Made by a program: the position numbers and the translations under genes. DNA of 64,000 nucleotides, from IMG/VR virus record IMGVR_UViG_3300042090_002485, positions 62,001 to 126,000 of that record. The stretch is one strand, 5' to 3'. Below the pieces are notes generated by a model. The model was not told the origin of the DNA. It did not search any database and was given only the letters and a program-made list of their open reading frames with translations. This stretch comes from a virus. Numbering within the stretch: position 1 is the first letter of the stretch; each line of letters begins with the position of its first letter. Below, piece by piece: positions 1 through 21,081 of the stretch.

Positions 1-4
1 TCAC

Positions 5-1981
5 ATGACGCGCACCAGGATGGACGTCCGCGTCGGCCGCGCGGGCAACGGCACCCCGGTCTTCATGATCCCGGGCCAGTCGCTCACCCACGGCCGCATC
101 TTCGGCGCGACGTGGGACGAGCAGCGCGGGCTGTGGATGTACCCCGCGTTCTTCCCGGCGTCCGAGAAGGTGCTGGCCGACTTCGACGTGATCTCGCGCG
201 ATGCCGAAGTGGTGTTGTCCCCCGTCGCCCAGCAACACATCGCTACCCTCGCCACGACCAAGGCCGCCCTCGCCGCGCGCGAGCTGCCGGCGTACTTCGA
301 CTACATCACCAAGCCGTACGCTCACCAGGTCGATGGGCTCTGCCACGTCTTCCACAACATCCGCGCCGCGCTCTACTTCGACCCTGGTCTGGGCAAGTCG
401 AAGATCGCCATCGACCTGGTGCGGCTGCTGCGGCTCGGCGGGATGCGAGGCTGCGCGCTCGTGCTCGGACCACGCGTCACCGTCGAGAACTGGGGTCGCG
501 AGATCGATCGTCATTCCGACCGCCAGCTCAGGTGGGTCGCGCTCGTCGGCTCGCCGAAGGAGAAAGAGGCTGCGCTCGACCGCGCCGCGCAGGAGCGCGT
601 CGACATCGTCTTGGCCACGTACGACACTGCCAAAAGGATAGTAGATTCGCTGGTTGCGCGACTACCCTACGAAGCGCTGATCCTGGACGAGAGCCACAAC
701 GTCAAGGCGTGGACGTCCAACCGGACGACGGCTGCGTGGGAAATCGCGCAGAAGGCCCAGCGCCGGGTGCTCATGACCGGTTCGCCGACCGAGGGCGACC
801 CACGGGACGTCTACGCGCCCTACAAGATCCTGGGTGACTGCTTCATGCCCGAGCCGCACCACAAGTTCGCGCGGATGGTGACCAAGCGCCCGTCGGAGCG
901 GTCGCACGTCGTGCACGGTTTCAAGAACCTCGACCTGGTCAACGCCCGCACCACGTTCCTGAGCATGCGACGGACCAAGGAGGAGTGCCTGGACCTGCCT
1001 GCGCGGACCTTCGTTGACGTCGACTACCGCCTCACCGACCGCCAGACCGCGCTCTACAACCAGGTGGTCGAGGATATGGGCATCGACCCGGTGGCGTTGG
1101 CGAACTTCGCCGCGCTGCTGCGCGCCGGCGCGGTGCCCCCCGCGCTGCTTCCTGGGCAGGGGTTCCAGGGCATGACGATGCCGCACCGCGCGGTTGCGCT
1201 GCTCAAGCTGCTGCAGATCACGTCCGGCTTCATCATCAACAACATCGTCGACAACAGCTACTGCGACACGGTGAACGGCGGCAATCCTTGCGCGCATCGG
1301 CAGCACTGCGTCGACCGTGAGATTAAGCCGCGCACGTCGAAGTGCCTCGTTGACAAGACGCCGTGGCCGACCGAGACGATCTACACTGACGCCAACCCCA
1401 AGCACGACGCGATCGCGGAGCTGATCGACAGCATCATCCAGGTCCCGGACGCCAAGGTCATCGTGTGGTGTGTGTTTCACCCCGAGATGGACTCAATCGC
1501 GCAGCGTGTGCAGGACGCGGGCATCGGGCACGTCCGAGTCGACGGGACGACCGCCAAACCGATGAAGGTGATCGATCGGTTCAACGACGATCCGTCCGTT
1601 CGGGTGTACATCGGGCAGGTCGCCTCCGGTGTCGGCGTGAACTTGGTGTCAGCCGCCTACGTCATCTACAGCTCGCTGCCGTACGCGCTCACGGCCTACT
1701 TGCAGAGCCTGGACCGGAACTACAGGATCGGGCAGGACAAGCCCGTCACGGTCTACCGCATGATCGGCTTGCAGACGCTGGAGGCCGCGGTCGCGTTCCT
1801 GCTAGACCACAAGGTCGATGTGGATGCGCTGATGACCAACAAGATCGAGTGCGGACTGTGCCCTCACGTCCTGCGCTGCCAAGCCGAGCGCATCGAGCCG
1901 TTCGAGACCGGCTGCATCCATCCCAAGACGATGAAGCGCCCCGTGCTGCGGGCCCACTCGATCCACCAGAACGGAGGCTGA
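5..1981 (+). CDS. SNF2/SWI2-family DNA helicase-translocase
   Basis: A 658-aa superfamily 2 ATPase. Visible motifs are Walker A (DPGLGKS, about residues 126-132), a DESH Walker B box at 228-231, motif III (TGSP) and a C-terminal helicase lobe ending in the SNF2 signature Q-S-L-D-R-x-x-R-I-G-Q at about 567-577. Two Cys-rich patches (a C-x-H-R-x-H-C stretch near 435 and C-x-x-C near 622) could bind zinc or an Fe-S cluster. Phage SNF2 proteins of this size are ATP-driven dsDNA translocases implicated in recombination or replication restart. The next gene begins 2 nt after its stop codon. The ATG at position 5 lies at the window edge and the frame is open upstream, so the true start could be earlier. 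Confidence 0.9.
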   Translation: MTRTRMDVRVGRAGNGTPVFMIPGQSLTHGRIFGATWDEQRGLWMYPAFFPASEKVLADFDVISRDAEVVLSPVAQQHIATLATTKAALAARELPAYFDYITKPYAHQVDGLCHVFHNIRAALYFDPGLGKSKIAIDLVRLLRLGGMRGCALVLGPRVTVENWGREIDRHSDRQLRWVALVGSPKEKEAALDRAAQERVDIVLATYDTAKRIVDSLVARLPYEALILDESHNVKAWTSNRTTAAWEIAQKAQRRVLMTGSPTEGDPRDVYAPYKILGDCFMPEPHHKFARMVTKRPSERSHVVHGFKNLDLVNARTTFLSMRRTKEECLDLPARTFVDVDYRLTDRQTALYNQVVEDMGIDPVALANFAALLRAGAVPPALLPGQGFQGMTMPHRAVALLKLLQITSGFIINNIVDNSYCDTVNGGNPCAHRQHCVDREIKPRTSKCLVDKTPWPTETIYTDANPKHDAIAELIDSIIQVPDAKVIVWCVFHPEMDSIAQRVQDAGIGHVRVDGTTAKPMKVIDRFNDDPSVRVYIGQVASGVGVNLVSAAYVIYSSLPYALTAYLQSLDRNYRIGQDKPVTVYRMIGLQTLEAAVAFLLDHKVDVDALMTNKIECGLCPHVLRCQAERIEPFETGCIHPKTMKRPVLRAHSIHQNGG

Positions 1982-3401: not shown

Positions 3402-3785
3402 ATGTCGCAAGCACACGCGCAGAAGCCCAACCAGACCCCGCAGACCTCGAACGCCGGCCAGCCCAGCATCGGTGCCGCTGCCGCAGCTGCCGCAGCCGCC
3501 ACCGCGAAGCCGACGGAGGCCAAGCCGGACGCCAAGCCCGAAGAGAAGACGGACACCAAGCCGGACAGCGCTACGACCGGCACCGCGACGGGTGCTGCAG
3601 CCGATGCCGCCAAGCCCGAGAAGAAGGGGCCGGCGCGCAAGCTGCTCATCATCGTCGGACAGGTTCACGAGTTCGACACGCCGGCCAAGGCCGAGGCCTT
3701 CTTGAACGGGCCGGATGCCCCCAAGGAGTTCCAGGTTTACCGGGGCAACGCGATCTCGACCCGGCGCAAGGTCTCTCTGCGTTAG
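3402..3785 (+). CDS. hypothetical protein, Ala/Lys/Pro-rich N-terminus
   Basis: A 127-aa protein. The first ~85 residues are low complexity, with a run of alanines (about 25-34) followed by KP-D/E-K repeats, and are probably disordered. The last ~45 residues (from ARKLLIIVGQVHEFDTP) form a compact domain with beta-alpha character that may be the functional part. A short AAAGG sequence precedes the ATG. Function not recognised. Confidence 0.65.
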   Translation: MSQAHAQKPNQTPQTSNAGQPSIGAAAAAAAAATAKPTEAKPDAKPEEKTDTKPDSATTGTATGAAADAAKPEKKGPARKLLIIVGQVHEFDTPAKAEAFLNGPDAPKEFQVYRGNAISTRRKVSLR

Positions 3786-3794
3786 AGTCAGGGG

Positions 3795-3953
3795 ATGGAG
3801 AAGTACGGCGTCGACGTTGATCCGGCCGCGGTCAAGCAGGCTTCCCAGGAGCCCGTCCAGGCATGCCCGTCCTGCCAAACGCCTCTCCGAACCGGCACCA
3901 ACGTGCCAACATGTCCAAAGTGCGGAACGCGCCCGTACGAGCAAAGCGAATGA
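3795..3953 (+). CDS. small zinc-ribbon protein (52 aa)
   Basis: A 52-aa reading frame beginning MEKYGVDVD and ending in KCGTRPYEQSE. It has two C-x-x-C knuckles (CPSC and CPKC, 14 residues apart), a classic minimal zinc ribbon. The ATG has GGGG immediately upstream. Its stop codon overlaps the ATG of the next gene (ATGA), which supports it as a real gene. Likely a small phage regulatory or adaptor protein; function unknown. Confidence 0.65.
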   Translation: MEKYGVDVDPAAVKQASQEPVQACPSCQTPLRTGTNVPTCPKCGTRPYEQSE

Positions 3954-4192
3954 GCCGCCGCCGCGGTGCACGCAGCGGCGTTGCGCTGCGCGTTGCTACG
4001 GACATCGCGTCGCGCTATCGCGACATCAAGGCCGCGTGGCTCGCGGTTCACAACGACCCGACCCGTTCGGTCGACTCCCTCGCCGCCGAGTTCTTCTTCA
4101 TGGTCGGCGACATCATGGAGGGCCGTCCCCTCCGCACGCTCAAGTTCACCAACATCAACCGCGACCGCGCCCTCGCGCACGCGGAGGAGTGA
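3950..4192 (+). CDS. hypothetical protein (80 aa)
   Basis: An 80-aa protein starting MSRRRGAR at an ATGA overlap with the upstream zinc-ribbon gene. The N-terminus is very basic (four Arg in the first eight residues). The rest looks helical with an amphipathic stretch around SLAAEFFFMVGDIMEG. The same frame is open further upstream, but the stop-start overlap makes position 3950 the best start. Function unknown. Confidence 0.6.
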   Translation: MSRRRGARSGVALRVATDIASRYRDIKAAWLAVHNDPTRSVDSLAAEFFFMVGDIMEGRPLRTLKFTNINRDRALAHAEE

Positions 4193-4197
4193 TCTAC

Positions 4198-4350
4198 ATG
4201 CGTACTGTCACGTCGGCGCGCCTTCGTGCCGTCGGTTTCCTATTGGTTGAGGCCGCCGGCCTCGCCATCCTGCTGTGGGACCGCGTCGGCAAGGACGCGC
4301 CCGTTCGCGCGGCCGTACTCGGCTTCGTTCGTCGCTTGAGGGCGATCTGA
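4198..4350 (+). CDS. small putative membrane protein (50 aa)
   Basis: A 50-aa frame, MRTVTSARLRAVGF onward, starting 5 nt after the preceding stop. It has a single hydrophobic segment (about residues 11-27, FLLVEAAGLAILLW) flanked by Arg residues, consistent with one short transmembrane helix and a basic C-terminal tail. Its stop overlaps the next start (TGATG). Function unknown; coding status rests on spacing and overlap. Confidence 0.5.
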   Translation: MRTVTSARLRAVGFLLVEAAGLAILLWDRVGKDAPVRAAVLGFVRRLRAI

Positions 4351-4865
4351 TGACGGTCAAGACGCTCGACGAGCTAGCTGAGATCGACACGGACGAGACG
4401 TTCGACTTGCCGCTGCCGCTCACGGTCACGTTCACGCTGACCGAACACACGTCGCCGGGCGCGTTCAAGAACCTCGCGACGCTCAAGCGCCTCGGCATCG
4501 ACCTGGGCGAGGCCTTGATGTCGGTGCTTGCGGTCGCGCCGGTCGACCCGATCAACCTGGCACGGACGCTCCTTCAGCACGACCCGAGCACTTGGAAGTT
4601 CGCGCCGCACGACTGCGCGTTCGTGCGCGTGCTGGCGCGGGCGCCGGACAAGAGCGTCGCGGCTGCGCTGCGCGTCGACCTCATCGGCGGCGACCTTGTC
4701 ACGCTCGTGCAGAACCGGGCGAGGCAGCTGACCATGTACGAGACGCTCGCTATCGAGCCAGGCCCGGACGTTGAGAAGAAGATCCAGGCGCTGTGCGACC
4801 GTGCCGTTGCGGCCGCCGCACGTGAGAGCAAGCCGCCCGTAACATCAAAAGGTTCCGAAACATGA
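4350..4865 (+). CDS. hypothetical protein (171 aa)
   Basis: A 171-aa protein, start chosen at the ATG overlapping the previous TGA (MTVKTLDEL). Codon use is typical of the neighbours. It resembles a small phage tail or assembly-type alpha/beta protein (an early LPLPLTVTFTLTEHTS strand pair, then helices), but no diagnostic motif is present. Its stop overlaps the ATG of the next gene. Function unknown. Confidence 0.65.
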   Translation: MTVKTLDELAEIDTDETFDLPLPLTVTFTLTEHTSPGAFKNLATLKRLGIDLGEALMSVLAVAPVDPINLARTLLQHDPSTWKFAPHDCAFVRVLARAPDKSVAAALRVDLIGGDLVTLVQNRARQLTMYETLAIEPGPDVEKKIQALCDRAVAAAARESKPPVTSKGSET

Positions 4866-16484: not shown

Positions 16485-17051
16485 ATGCCCTTCCTGCCGT
16501 TGAACGACCACAAGCTGTTCTTCTTCGACTGCGAGACCGGGGGCCTGGACCCGTCCAAGACCGACATGGTCGAGGTTGCCTGCGTGGTCACCGACCCGAC
16601 AGGGCGCAACATCCTGTCGGAGTACCACGCTCGCGTGTTCCCGCGGCGGCCGGTCGAGGCGAAGGCGGCGTCGATCAACGGCTATAACGAGGAGAAGTGG
16701 GCCGAGGACGCCGTGACAATCGACGTCGCGATGGTCAAGCTGCTCGAGCGGGCGAAGGACTGCTTGTTCTGCTCGCACAACACCCCGTTCGACTGGGGCT
16801 ACTTCTCGACAGCGATGCTGGAGCGCGGCGGGCGTTGGCGGGGCGACTACCACCGCATCGACACGGTGGCGCTCGCGACGCCGCTGCTCAAGGCCGGCAA
16901 GGTCATCGACTTGAAGCTCGGCACGCTGTGCGACCACTTCAGCATCGACAAGGGCGAGCCGCACCGGGCGATGAGCGACGCGCGGGCGTGCCATCAGCTC
17001 TACCTGAAGCTGATGGACATCTACGCCCCGCTATTCGTGCGCGCGCCGTAG
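16485..17051 (+). CDS. DnaQ-like 3'-5' exonuclease (DEDDh)
   Basis: A 188-aa exonuclease of the RNase T/DnaQ superfamily. Exo I is FFFDCETGG (D15, E17), Exo II is SHNTPFDWGYF, and Exo III is H-R-A-M-S-D-A, giving the DEDDh set. The length matches stand-alone DnaQ/RNase T-type enzymes. Because the polymerase already has its own proofreading domain, this enzyme more likely serves repair, RNA turnover or degradation of host DNA. An AGAGGA ribosome binding site precedes the ATG. The TAG stop abuts the convergent terminase stop (TAGCTA). Confidence 0.9.
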   Translation: MPFLPLNDHKLFFFDCETGGLDPSKTDMVEVACVVTDPTGRNILSEYHARVFPRRPVEAKAASINGYNEEKWAEDAVTIDVAMVKLLERAKDCLFCSHNTPFDWGYFSTAMLERGGRWRGDYHRIDTVALATPLLKAGKVIDLKLGTLCDHFSIDKGEPHRAMSDARACHQLYLKLMDIYAPLFVRAP

Positions 17052-19769
17052 CTACGTGAAGCGCAAGTTGCCGCTTAGGACACCGTTGGCGAGCCAGCCG
17101 AAGACCTGGGCGTGAAGCGAGTCGTCGGGCATGGTCGGGGAGTGGCGCCAGACCCTGCGCCCGGCGTGCGTGACCTCCTCGTAGACGTTGAGGATGTCGT
17201 TGATGGCTGGCTGCGCGTCCGACAGGCGCGGGAAGATGACCTGCTTGTGCAAGAGCTGACGGGCGTAATTGTCGATCATCGTCGTGCGGTCGACGTGGTA
17301 GGCCAGCGTCGAGGGGTTCCAGGTCTCCATCGGCTTGGACAGGTTCAGGTAGCGGAACGCGAGCACACGATGGTCACCGAGCCGCTGACGTAGGAACGAG
17401 TTGGCCAACATGCCCTCGCCCGCGTCGGCGCCGACCATCTCGACGCCCCACTTGTTGCACAGCTCGACGATCTCGTCGATCCAGCCCACGGCGTGGCCGT
17501 TCGGGAAGATCTTCGACGTCAGGGTGCGGAGCCGTCCGTCGGCCTGCTGACCCCAGATGTGGAGCACGGTGCGGGATTTGTAAAGCCCTTCGCTGCCTTT
17601 GACTTCGCCGCCGCCACCCGACCAGTCAACGCCCGCCGTCGTGCGGACGATGCCCTTCTTCGCGCCGGGCTGCGGCAATCGTTCGATGACGAGCTTCTCG
17701 TCACACAACGATTCGAGGACCTCCTTGGTCAGGAGGCGCACGCCGGTCGACGTGCTCACGCCGATGCACTCGTTCAAGAACTTGGACTCGCCGTAGAGTG
17801 GCGAGTTCATCTTGTAGAGCAGCTTGTCCCAACGCTCGACAGCACGGTCGAAGCCTTCGCTGCCGGGAACCCACGCGGCGGGCACGTCCGTCGGCATGAT
17901 GGCCTGGCTAACGTGGAAGCCCTTGATGCTCGCCCCGGGCACCATGTCGACCCACTTGCCCGCCCGCGGGTTCAGTAGGTGGCCGCACGAGACGCAGATC
18001 AGACCCTTCTTGCCGAGCGCCTTGACGCCGTCGACGAACGTCCACTTGCTGCAACCGTCGCACCGCATACACCACTCGGTCTGGGTCGACAGCGACCACA
18101 GGACCTCGATGGTGTTCTCCATCGTCTTGGGCGTGCCCGCGTACGCCGAGTACTGGTAGTTCGAGCGGGCCATGCACTCCTCGATGACGGGGATGACGGC
18201 CTCGTAGAGCATGTCCTGGATCTCGTCGAAGCACTGACCCGCGATTATCGGTCGTTGATCGACCCCGCCGCGCACGATGGGCCGATGATGCGGCACCGTG
18301 AAGCAGTAGACCGGTTCGTTGACGACTTCTTCAACAGACACGCGTCGCTTGGTCGCATATTCAGATCGCCAGAACACGGCGTGCGACTCGGCGTACGCCT
18401 GCACCTCGTAGAGGGGAAGTGGCGGTCCGCCAGGGCGCTGCGGCATCTGCCGCGTGTGTACGACCGCAGGGCGCCCGAGCAGCGCCCAGGCGCGATGCAC
18501 GTCGTCGGCCAGGCGACGCGACCGCGTTCGCAGCGTGCCGTGGTCCCACCGGTCGATCACGATACTCGCGTCACCTTGGTAAAGAGCCCGCAGCAGGGAT
18601 GGCAGCAGTGCCGGGTGCTCGAAGAACACGGCTGGGATGTACTTGCTGAAGCTGTTCCCCAAGGGCGCGACGTACTGACAAACCTGCGAGGACGCGATTA
18701 CGTAGGTGTGTTTGACGACGCGCCCTTTCTTGGTCTGACGCGACGACGGCTGCCGCGAGTACGTGAACCCGCAGCGACGCAGGCAGTCCTCGATGTCGAG
18801 ACTGTATCGGGATGCGTTCTGCGTGATGATGGCACTACCGTTCCGGCGCACTCCCTTCGTCCGGCGCCAAGAAACGTGGCCCTCCGCAAGGTACCAGCCC
18901 ATGAACTCAGAGAAGGCGCGCGCGTCGACATCGACCGGCGAGCGGCTCGTCGCGTAACCAATGGAACTGCCGGGCACGTGGATGACGACAGGCGGGGCAT
19001 CGTCGATGCGACACGCGCTTGTCATCTTGAAGCCCATGCGTTCAGTGCGTGCGATGTCCAGCGCGGAAGCGAATTGCCAGACATCTGGTGTCTTGTAGCG
19101 CGGGCCCGTCTTTACGCGAAAGTTGACCCACATCTTGTGGTCCCCGGTCACGCGAAGGTCCATCCCGGCGTGGTGAAACTTGACCATCTGACCGGTGTAC
19201 GGCAACGCGAAGAGCTTCGACGGACGGTGCCACCGGATACAGCCCTCGTCATCTACATCAGCGACTTCGTCTGCGAGGGTCAGGTCTTTGACGCAGCGCC
19301 AGCCGGCACGCGTAAGCACTTGAGCGCTCGCGTCGAAGCAGCACCGGTCTGCCGAGTAACCACGAGCGCGGTCCGGGTCGTCCATGGCGTACGTGAACGC
19401 CATCTCCGACCCGTTCTTGAGCATGCGCAACAGGACGTTGTCGATCGACTCCGGGCCGACGAACGCCTTCCGCACGTCGGGGCTGTACGCCAGGATCTTG
19501 GCGACGCGGGTGTGCGAGAACTTCCGCGTTTGCTCCTGGGTCGGCGAAATGTAGTACGACCTGAACGGCGCGGACGCGATGGCCTCGGCGATCATGAACG
19601 CCGCAAGCGTCGTCGACTTGGTGACCTGGCGCCCGGTCTTCAGCAGCAGGCGCGAGTAGTTGCCGTCGAACACGGCCTGGAACATCGGGTAGTCCGCCAG
19701 TGACAGCGGCTTGCCGTCGACGTAGAACAACCCCTGCGCGATGGTGGAGCGATAAACCTCTTCCGACAT
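17052..19769 (-). CDS. terL: terminase large subunit interrupted by an intein
   Basis: A 905-aa precursor. The mature terminase would be 536 aa. Its ATPase has a P-loop-like GRQVTKST at 46-53 and a Walker B CFDEIQDM that is created only after splicing. A zinc ribbon (CMRCDGC ... CVSCG) follows, then an RNase H-fold nuclease with acids in GVDWSGG, GADAGEG and PDDSLHAQ. The intein occupies residues 144-512. TerL cuts and pumps concatemeric DNA into proheads at the portal. The zinc ribbon between ATPase and nuclease resembles GpA-type terminases. It is transcribed alone on the - strand, divergent from the MoxR gene across 37 bp and with a weak Shine-Dalgarno. Confidence 0.92.
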   Translation of the reverse strand: MSEEVYRSTIAQGLFYVDGKPLSLADYPMFQAVFDGNYSRLLLKTGRQVTKSTTLAAFMIAEAIASAPFRSYYISPTQEQTRKFSHTRVAKILAYSPDVRKAFVGPESIDNVLLRMLKNGSEMAFTYAMDDPDRARGYSADRCCFDASAQVLTRAGWRCVKDLTLADEVADVDDEGCIRWHRPSKLFALPYTGQMVKFHHAGMDLRVTGDHKMWVNFRVKTGPRYKTPDVWQFASALDIARTERMGFKMTSACRIDDAPPVVIHVPGSSIGYATSRSPVDVDARAFSEFMGWYLAEGHVSWRRTKGVRRNGSAIITQNASRYSLDIEDCLRRCGFTYSRQPSSRQTKKGRVVKHTYVIASSQVCQYVAPLGNSFSKYIPAVFFEHPALLPSLLRALYQGDASIVIDRWDHGTLRTRSRRLADDVHRAWALLGRPAVVHTRQMPQRPGGPPLPLYEVQAYAESHAVFWRSEYATKRRVSVEEVVNEPVYCFTVPHHRPIVRGGVDQRPIIAGQCFDEIQDMLYEAVIPVIEECMARSNYQYSAYAGTPKTMENTIEVLWSLSTQTEWCMRCDGCSKWTFVDGVKALGKKGLICVSCGHLLNPRAGKWVDMVPGASIKGFHVSQAIMPTDVPAAWVPGSEGFDRAVERWDKLLYKMNSPLYGESKFLNECIGVSTSTGVRLLTKEVLESLCDEKLVIERLPQPGAKKGIVRTTAGVDWSGGGGEVKGSEGLYKSRTVLHIWGQQADGRLRTLTSKIFPNGHAVGWIDEIVELCNKWGVEMVGADAGEGMLANSFLRQRLGDHRVLAFRYLNLSKPMETWNPSTLAYHVDRTTMIDNYARQLLHKQVIFPRLSDAQPAINDILNVYEEVTHAGRRVWRHSPTMPDDSLHAQVFGWLANGVLSGNLRFT
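18234..19340 (-). mobile_element. LAGLIDADG intein in TerL Walker B
   Basis: A 369-aa protein intron. Block A starts CFDASAQVLTRAGWRCVKDL. Block B has the T-G-D-H motif (208-211). Two dodecapeptides of a LAGLIDADG homing endonuclease are FMGWYLAEGH (289-298) and LLRALYQGDA (392-401). Block F is PVYCFTVPHHRPIVRGG. The intein ends in A-G-Q before Cys+1 (CFDEIQ). The terminal Gln and the lack of the usual penultimate His are non-canonical but known in some inteins. Both junctions carry the same 10 bp (plus strand CGTCGAAGCA at 18224-18233 and 19331-19340). Confidence 0.9.
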
Positions 19770-19806: not shown

Positions 19807-21081
19807 ATGAGCAAGACCGAAACGCCGAAGGCCGCCGACGATACGTTCGCCTCCAAGCTCGGCATCAAGATGTGCACGCCGAGCCAGTACGAGGAGCAGA
19901 TCCTCCTGCGCGCGGGCACGCCCGACGTCGCGTGCGCGATCGGCCCGTCCGGCATCGGCAAGACCGCCATCCCCAAGCAGGTGGCGGCAGGGCGGAACAA
20001 GGGCAAGGGTGTGCCGTACTGCGCGCTGTTCATGCCGACCGCGACGCAGGAGGGCTTCTTCATCCCGACCACCGCGCAGGACACCAAGGTCTTCTTCGAC
20101 CAGCGCATCCCGCGCACGTTCCAGAAGCTCCTCGAGCACGGCGAGGCGATGGACAAGAAGTACGGCGAGGGCAAGGTTCCCAAGGACCTGTGCCCGATCC
20201 TCGCCATCGAGGAGCTGAACCGCGCCTCGGACAAGTCGGTCACGCGTGCCGCGTTCGTGCTCATCGGTGATCGGATGATCGGCGACGTGCACCTGCCGTC
20301 CTGCGTGCAGATCGTCGCGACCATGAACCCGTCCGGTGCGGGCTTCGTCGTCAACGAGTTCGAGAAGGACCACGCGATGCGGCGCCGGCTCTGCTGCTTC
20401 GGCGTCCAGCACAGCTACGGCGACTTCATGAAGTACGCCCAGAGCGCGAAGTTCCATCCCAAGGTGATCGCGTTCCTCGGTGCGACGCCGTCGTTCGCGT
20501 ACGATGAGACTGCGCAGCTGGCAGGCAAGGCGTTCGCGTGCCCGGCGACCTGGGAGGTGGCGTCCAGGACGTGCTACCAGCTCGACGCCGCCAAGATCCC
20601 GTTGACCGCCCCGACCGCGGAGATCGCGCTCGCTGGTTCGATCGGTGAGGCCGCCGCGCTGGCGTTCGGCGAGTTCGCCAAGGACCACACGCTGCTGGTC
20701 ACGCCGCAGGACGTGCTCGACACCTACGCCGTCGGCAGCGAGGCGCAGCGACGGTTCAAGGCCTACCTCACCGAAGACGGTGGTCGGTTCGACAAGATCT
20801 CCGAGCTGGTCACGGGTGTCGTCGTCCGCATCTTCGCGGACACCAAGCGCCCGGCCGAGTCCATCGCCAAGCAGACGGCGCTGTTCATCAGCGACCTGCC
20901 CGCCGAGATCACGATGTCGATGATGAGCAAGCTGGCCGAGGAATCGGGGCGCGTGGGCAGCGACGCGAAGAGCTACTTGACCCGCATCAACCAGCTGTGG
21001 GCTGCGGACCCGATCTACACCGAGGCGCTGACCCGGCTCGACGCGGCCCGCCGCGCCGCGTCCAAGAAGGACGCTGGCTAG
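19807..21081 (+). CDS. MoxR/CobS-type AAA+ ATPase
   Basis: A 424-aa AAA+ ATPase. Walker A is GPSGIGKT (46-53), Walker B is ILAIEELNRA (E135/E136), sensor 1 is VATMNPSG, and an RRR arginine-finger segment follows. This is the MoxR/RavA/CobS clade, whose members act with VWA-domain partners to remodel protein complexes or insert metals. A VWA/metallopeptidase gene follows at 22772 after two reverse-strand genes. GAAGGA precedes the ATG. CobS-like annotation is common for phage homologues, and a B12-dependent RNR is encoded 7 kb away, but a cobaltochelatase role is only an inference. Confidence 0.87.
   Translation: MSKTETPKAADDTFASKLGIKMCTPSQYEEQILLRAGTPDVACAIGPSGIGKTAIPKQVAAGRNKGKGVPYCALFMPTATQEGFFIPTTAQDTKVFFDQRIPRTFQKLLEHGEAMDKKYGEGKVPKDLCPILAIEELNRASDKSVTRAAFVLIGDRMIGDVHLPSCVQIVATMNPSGAGFVVNEFEKDHAMRRRLCCFGVQHSYGDFMKYAQSAKFHPKVIAFLGATPSFAYDETAQLAGKAFACPATWEVASRTCYQLDAAKIPLTAPTAEIALAGSIGEAAALAFGEFAKDHTLLVTPQDVLDTYAVGSEAQRRFKAYLTEDGGRFDKISELVTGVVVRIFADTKRPAESIAKQTALFISDLPAEITMSMMSKLAEESGRVGSDAKSYLTRINQLWAADPIYTEALTRLDAARRAASKKDAG

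What the first reader, a model, noticed from the sequence alone, without database searches (positions are those of the whole stretch)
18234..19340. Intein in the terminase Walker B with terminal Gln and duplicated junction sequence
The intein (C144-Q512) interrupts the Walker B strand, so TerL is inactive until spliced. It ends Ala-Gly-Gln rather than His-Asn. The plus-strand 10-mer CGTCGAAGCA is present at both junctions: intein and C-extein both begin Cys-Phe-Asp.
Basis: partly seen in the sequence, partly recalled or inferred. Interest (0 to 1): 0.7.

Follow-up and report, generated by a model that had tools for sequence, protein, structure and literature searches.

The report
Mobile terminase intein with terminal glutamine
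A phage DNA-packaging gene carries a self-splicing, probably self-copying protein insert (an intein) in its ATP-hydrolysis motif; it is a new member of a well-known kind, but near-identical viruses with a related insert absent, at this site, or 57 bases downstream make its movement unusually visible.

Summary
A 369-residue LAGLIDADG intein (C144-Q512, window 18234-19340, minus strand) splits the TerL Walker B strand at ADRC|CFDEIQD. Its AlphaFold model (pLDDT 91.8) matches complete VMA and PI-SceI inteins end to end (Z about 22-25). Empty alleles fix the boundaries: one virus (L124) has TerL with no insert, and its near-twin (L005, 97-98% DNA identity) carries a related intein at exactly this site; removing that intein leaves an identical TerL (535 residues).

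The features flagged as odd are ordinary or have precedent. Penultimate Gly is the family norm (51 of 60). Terminal Gln is the norm in this clade (7 of 8) and is published for splicing-competent inteins. The junction 10-mer follows from Cys-Phe-Asp on both sides plus codon bias; other inteins at this site lack it.

More interesting: related inteins occupy a second site 19 codons downstream. Near-identical viruses show all three states (empty, site A, site B), and sequence differences pile up beside the insertions, as homing would leave. Splicing and DNA cleavage are inferred, not shown. New member of a known kind.

The parts
17052..19769 (-). terL ORF, 905-aa precursor
   Evidence: open frame; PHROG 675 2.7e-36; GpA_ATPase 3.5e-10
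19341..19769 (-). N-extein, residues 1-143, ends ADRC
   Evidence: empty alleles L017, L124
18234..19340 (-). intein, residues 144-512 (369 aa)
   Evidence: structure match over 1..369
17052..18233 (-). C-extein, residues 513-905, starts CFDEIQD (includes stop codon)
19611..19634 (-). Walker A region GRQVTKST of TerL
   Evidence: inside the GpA_ATPase match; motif read from sequence
18213..18233 (-). CFDEIQD, second half of Walker B, right at the C-junction
   Evidence: joined exteins give one continuous ATPase match
19331..19340 (+). CGTCGAAGCA, copy at the intein start (codes Cys-Phe-Asp on the minus strand)
18224..18233 (+). CGTCGAAGCA, copy at the C-extein start
19137..19148 (-). block B T65-G-D-H68
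   Evidence: T65 and H68 at least 90% conserved in 20 inteins
18879..18905 (-). first LAGLIDADG motif FMGWYLAEG, acidic residue E153
   Evidence: invariant column; LAGLIDADG_3
18570..18596 (-). second LAGLIDADG motif LRALYQGD region, acidic residue D257
   Evidence: nearly invariant column
18273..18311 (-). block F VYCFTVPHHRPIV, with Cys346 and candidate assisting histidines
   Evidence: C346 invariant
18234..18242 (-). terminal Ala-Gly-Gln of the intein

Best explanation
A class 1 LAGLIDADG homing intein in a GpA/PHROG-675-type phage terminase large subunit, at site A in the Walker B strand (ADRC|CFDEIQD). Inferred steps: the precursor is translated; Cys144 attacks the N-junction; the N-extein passes to Cys513; Gln512 cyclises, probably helped by block F histidines because the penultimate residue is Gly; the exteins join to give ...ADRCCFDEIQD..., restoring Walker B and the packaging ATPase. 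The nested endonuclease cuts empty terL alleles in co-infecting phages, and break repair copies the intein in together with flanking DNA. Shown here by comparison: fold, motifs, exact boundaries, empty alleles, horizontal spread, and sequence tracts that fit homing. Not shown: splicing, Gln cyclisation, DNA cleavage.
For: Fold: residues 1..369 align to complete inteins. Splicing and endonuclease motifs conserved. Joined exteins restore the ATPase profile: GpA_ATPase 47.5 bits in one stretch against 40.4 in pieces, Terminase_6N 29.6 against 15.6. Empty alleles L017 RC|CFDE and L124 RC|CYDE. L005, with a homologous intein at this site, has exteins identical to L124 over 535 aa. L124 and L005 differ at 21 of 300 positions just upstream of the insertion but 17 of 3494 elsewhere, Fisher p 3e-14. 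L029 shares 48% of the intein but only 33% of the extein with the window. The +1 residue is Cys in all six occupied site-A TerLs of this kind but C/S/T in only 27 of 87 empty ones. A second contig (L006) crosses the N-junction at 100% identity.
Against: No splicing or cleavage assay. Pol II inteins with terminal Gln splice slowly (PMC4031507). The NCBIfam intein_Nterm profile is only weakly matched (15.4 bits, cut-off 24.5). In the 300-base tract both intein-bearing genomes agree against the empty one at 14 sites, so three genomes do not settle which allele was converted.
Confidence: 0.93

Rival explanations
1. A splicing-poor or decaying intein: the fold remains, but terminal Gln plus penultimate Gly makes splicing inefficient and precursor or cleaved halves dominate.
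For: No His-Asn ending; Pab and Mma Pol II inteins with Gln splice slowly and improve with Asn (PMC4031507); L005 at the same site ends in Asn.
Against: CIV RNR splices better with native Gln than with Asn (PMC4031507). Gln is kept in 7 of 8 relatives across 41-51% identity, unlikely for a failing element in an essential gene. Penultimate Gly is usual here (51 of 60), and a phage RDF intein with Gly splices faster than its His mutant (PMC5050341).
Confidence: 0.05
2. The duplicated 10-mer is a footprint of how the intein entered (microhomology or a target-site duplication) and a device for its precise loss.
For: Exact 10-nt repeat in the window and an equivalent Tyr version (TGCTACGACG) in L005. 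Matches at intein positions 2 and 3 with the C-extein occur in 4 of 60 inteins against 1.24 expected, p 0.014, rows not independent. Recombination between the copies would restore the gene exactly.
Against: Homing leaves no target-site duplication. 37 of 60 family members start C[FY]D whatever their extein. Codon bias explains the DNA identity. L029 and L269 at the same site have no such repeat. Site-B inteins also start CFD, before a CM extein.
Confidence: 0.04
3. The boundaries are shifted by one: Cys143, not Cys144, is the first intein residue.
For: Two adjacent cysteines at the N-junction.
Against: Empty alleles keep both residues (RCCFDE in L017, RCCYDE in L124), and residue -1 is Thr in L004. 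Removing the C144-Q512 equivalent from L005 reproduces the L124 protein exactly.
Confidence: 0.01

Closest known systems
Mycobacteriophage TerL inteins, above all TerL1-e in Walker B (PMC5050341)
   Same: Class 1 inteins in the TerL ATPase domain, one set in Walker B; penultimate His often lost; five representatives spliced and two were tested and cut intein-less targets.
   Different: Those hosts are Terminase_1, Terminase_6 or Pham3880 proteins; this is a GpA/PHROG-675-type TerL of an uncultivated virus. The main text has no mention of Gln or glutamine.
Gln-terminated inteins: P. abyssi and M. marisnigri Pol II, Chilo iridescent virus RNR (PMC4031507, PMC8175363)
   Same: Gln replaces the terminal Asn and cyclises in step 3.
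   Different: Other host proteins; here Gln comes with penultimate Gly in a full-length LAGLIDADG intein and is the norm for a phage clade.
VMA-type LAGLIDADG inteins (PI-SceI, TliVMA, PhoVMA)
   Same: Whole splicing-plus-endonuclease architecture, residues 1..369 aligned, Z 22-25.
   Different: Only 12-16% identity; other host gene and endings.
Neighbouring MCM inteins of haloarchaea (PMC10643990)
   Same: Several intein sites close together in one gene; the +1 residue of many empty alleles must be co-converted.
   Different: There double-intein alleles exist and were tested in vivo; here the two sites are 57 bases apart, their inteins are close kin, and no double allele was seen.

Membership tests
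Intein | In-frame insert absent from otherwise intact homologues | tested here: met
   L124 empty, L005 occupied, exteins identical over 535 aa; many other empty alleles.
Intein | Intein (Hint) fold including both termini | tested here: met
   pLDDT 91.8; matches to VMA, PI-SceI, Prp8 and DnaE inteins that include residues 1 and 369.
Intein | Demonstrated protein splicing | not testable with these tools
   Needs expression.
Class 1 intein | Cys or Ser at position 1 and Cys, Ser or Thr at +1 | tested here: met
   C144 and C513.
Class 1 intein | Block B Thr and His | tested here: met
   T65 and H68 in VTGDH, at least 90% conserved.
Class 1 intein, canonical ending | His-Asn at the C-terminus | tested here: not met
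   Gly-Gln. PMC4031507 describes inteins ending in Gln as using the same mechanism with Gln cyclisation, so it is a variant ending and not grounds for exclusion from class 1.
Class 3 intein | No nucleophile at position 1 | tested here: not met
   Cys144 is present, although Cys346 lies in block F.
LAGLIDADG homing endonuclease | Two LAGLIDADG motifs with acidic residues | tested here: met
   E153 and D257; LAGLIDADG_3 30 bits, cut-off 22.5; I-DmoI matches over 118..319.
LAGLIDADG homing endonuclease | Cuts the empty allele, causing homing with co-conversion | tested here: inconclusive
   Difference tracts beside both insertion sites in natural alleles fit it; no cleavage assay.
Mycobacteriophage TerL1-e insertion | Same residue of Walker B in a Terminase_1 protein | not tested
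   Same motif by the paper's description; no TerL1-e sequence was aligned here.

The most novel reading that the evidence does not exclude
In this group of phages one intein lineage, which normally splices by Gln cyclisation, has hopped between two sites 57 bases apart in terL; the two versions now compete for and exclude each other from the same gene, so near-identical viruses exist as empty, site-A and site-B alleles.
Probability: 0.35. Interest if true: 0.5.

Novelty: new member of a known kind. Interest (0 to 1): 0.35.

Why it matters
The intein itself adds one case to a known pattern. Its relatives are more useful: a natural empty/occupied pair with identical exteins; a clade whose usual last residue is Gln, with one Asn relative at the same site; and a two-site system in one gene for studying how inteins change site and compete. 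The site-B inteins form one clade (100/100) among the site-A ones, and holding the site-A inteins together is weakly rejected (p-AU 0.03), which hints that B arose from A.

Tried and rejected
Class 3 intein (Cys in block F): rejected, Cys1 is present. Start at C143: rejected by empty alleles. Junction repeat as a signature: rejected by family statistics and by repeat-less inteins at the same site. Prevotella phage Lak-A1 and Mycobacterium C1 phage hits looked like TerL matches because the alignments ran into the N-extein; the Lak frame does not read as TerL and the C1 gene is annotated nucleotidyltransferase. Gordonia GMA6 TerL has an intein, but upstream of Walker B. L010 first looked like a Walker B deletion; L023 and L024 show it is an intein at site B (the L010 contig ends inside the intein, so its N-junction is unseen). 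A bacterial and archaeal genome scan gave only 22-29% relatives.

Full report
OBSERVATION. The gene is one open frame, 17052-19769 on the minus strand, 905 residues. Residues 144-512 are the insert. The window lies in a 187,862-base virus record.

HOST GENE. PHROG 675 (terminase large subunit) matches at 2.7e-36 and Pfam GpA_ATPase at 3.5e-10. With the exteins joined, GpA_ATPase becomes one continuous match (31-209, 47.5 bits, from 40.4 in pieces) and Terminase_6N rises from 15.6 to 29.6 bits. The restored string CCFDEIQD is read as the Walker B strand with its DE pair, so the insert splits Walker B. That the precursor is inactive follows from general knowledge of these ATPases and was not tested.

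WHAT IT IS. The AlphaFold model, built with 20 relatives, has pLDDT 91.8 and pTM 0.91. It aligns over residues 1..369 to whole LAGLIDADG inteins: TliVMA Z 25.1, PI-PkoII (2cw7) 24.2, PI-SceI 22.4; the middle part also matches I-DmoI. By sequence, the family profile reaches PI-PkoII and VMA inteins at about 1e-14. C1, T65, H68, E153, D257 and C346 are invariant or nearly so.

BOUNDARIES AND EMPTY ALLELES. TerL without insert reads ADRC|CFDEVQD in L017, ADRC|CYDEVQD in L124 and ADRC|NFDEVQD in L011. L124 and L005 come from near-identical viruses (98.2% and 97.2% DNA identity on the two sides). L005 has a homologous intein (48% to the window's) at this exact site, and its exteins equal the L124 protein over all 535 residues. 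That settles the boundaries and shows that the element is optional.

TWO SITES. L023, L024 and L010 carry related inteins (42-44% to the window's) at IEE|CM or INE|CM, 19 codons downstream; for L010 only the C-terminal junction is seen. The TerL of L023 is 98% identical to that of L124. So L124, L005 and L023 are one kind of virus in three states: empty, site A, site B. No gene with both was seen, in a small sample. In the tree, the site-B inteins form one clade (100/100) inside a supported seven-member group, while the hosts of A and B inteins fall into both of two TerL clades (L269, found later, is not in the tree). L029 shares 48% of the intein but 33% of the extein with the window. These patterns show horizontal spread. 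A single site-A clade is weakly rejected (p-AU 0.032), so B may derive from A.

TRACES OF HOMING. Empty against site A: 21 differences in the 300 bases upstream of the insertion, 17 in the other 3494 compared (Fisher p 3e-14). Empty against site B: 23 of 300 upstream and 54 of 800 downstream, against 33 of 1994 and 4 of 643 further out. This is what co-conversion during break repair leaves. Caveats: only three genomes, all metagenomic, and at 14 upstream sites A and B agree against the empty allele, so which allele changed is open.

THE ODD ENDS. In 60 related inteins, penultimate Gly occurs in 51 and terminal Asn in 54; the script misread the ends of two rows, L095 (true end CGN) and L035 (true end CGQ). 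Among the window's nearest kin, Gln ends seven of eight (window, L004, L023, L024, L010, L029, L269) and Asn one, L005. Published inteins cyclise Gln: Pol II inteins slowly, CIV RNR better with Gln than with Asn (PMC4031507; PMC8175363). Loss of the penultimate His is common in mycobacteriophage inteins, and Gly works in the RDF intein (PMC5050341). The ending is a variant within class 1.

THE 10-MER. C[FY]D starts 37 of 60 family members, and TerL's own Walker B gives CFD or CYD here. Given CFD twice, codon bias gives identical codons in 79% of cases. Matches at positions 2 and 3 exceed permutation slightly (4 against 1.24, p 0.014), but the rows are related TerLs. L029 and L269, at the same site, lack the repeat. 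Coincidence is the best reading. The repeat would permit precise loss by recombination; that is untested.

TARGET CHOICE. At site A the +1 residue is C, S or T in 27 of 87 empty TerLs but Cys in the six occupied ones of this kind (window, L004, L005, L027, L029, L269). Many empty alleles could therefore not splice without co-conversion of that codon, as described for MCM-d inteins (PMC10643990).

VERDICT. A real, intact and probably active homing intein; a new member of a known kind. The three allelic states and the two-site pattern are the parts worth following.

Noticed in passing
G000:C1:56367-57437 (L002), outside the window: A second LAGLIDADG intein in the same genome, in an RpoB-like RNA polymerase subunit (GDKL|CFDEATEVL...AWCGN|CNRYGNKG); similar inteins interrupt RNA-polymerase-like genes on other viral contigs.
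   Followed up: partly
L028, L065, L273, L248: TerL genes with other inserts: L028 and L065 have a short intein in Walker A (K|S) plus a LAGLIDADG intein just after the Walker B DE (DE|CQD); L273 also has two inserts; L248 has one at DE|C.
   Followed up: partly
L024, second LAGLIDADG motif of its intein (3501-4565): GDA is changed to GNA, so this site-B intein probably has a dead endonuclease while its ends are kept.
   Followed up: no
L124 about positions 961-1145, against L005 and L023: A further indel of roughly 180 bases between otherwise near-identical viruses, upstream of terL.
   Followed up: no
window 16485-17051 (+) and 19807-21081 (+): terL is flanked by an RNase_T-type exonuclease and a PHROG 1297 ATPase, both on the opposite strand.
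   Followed up: partly
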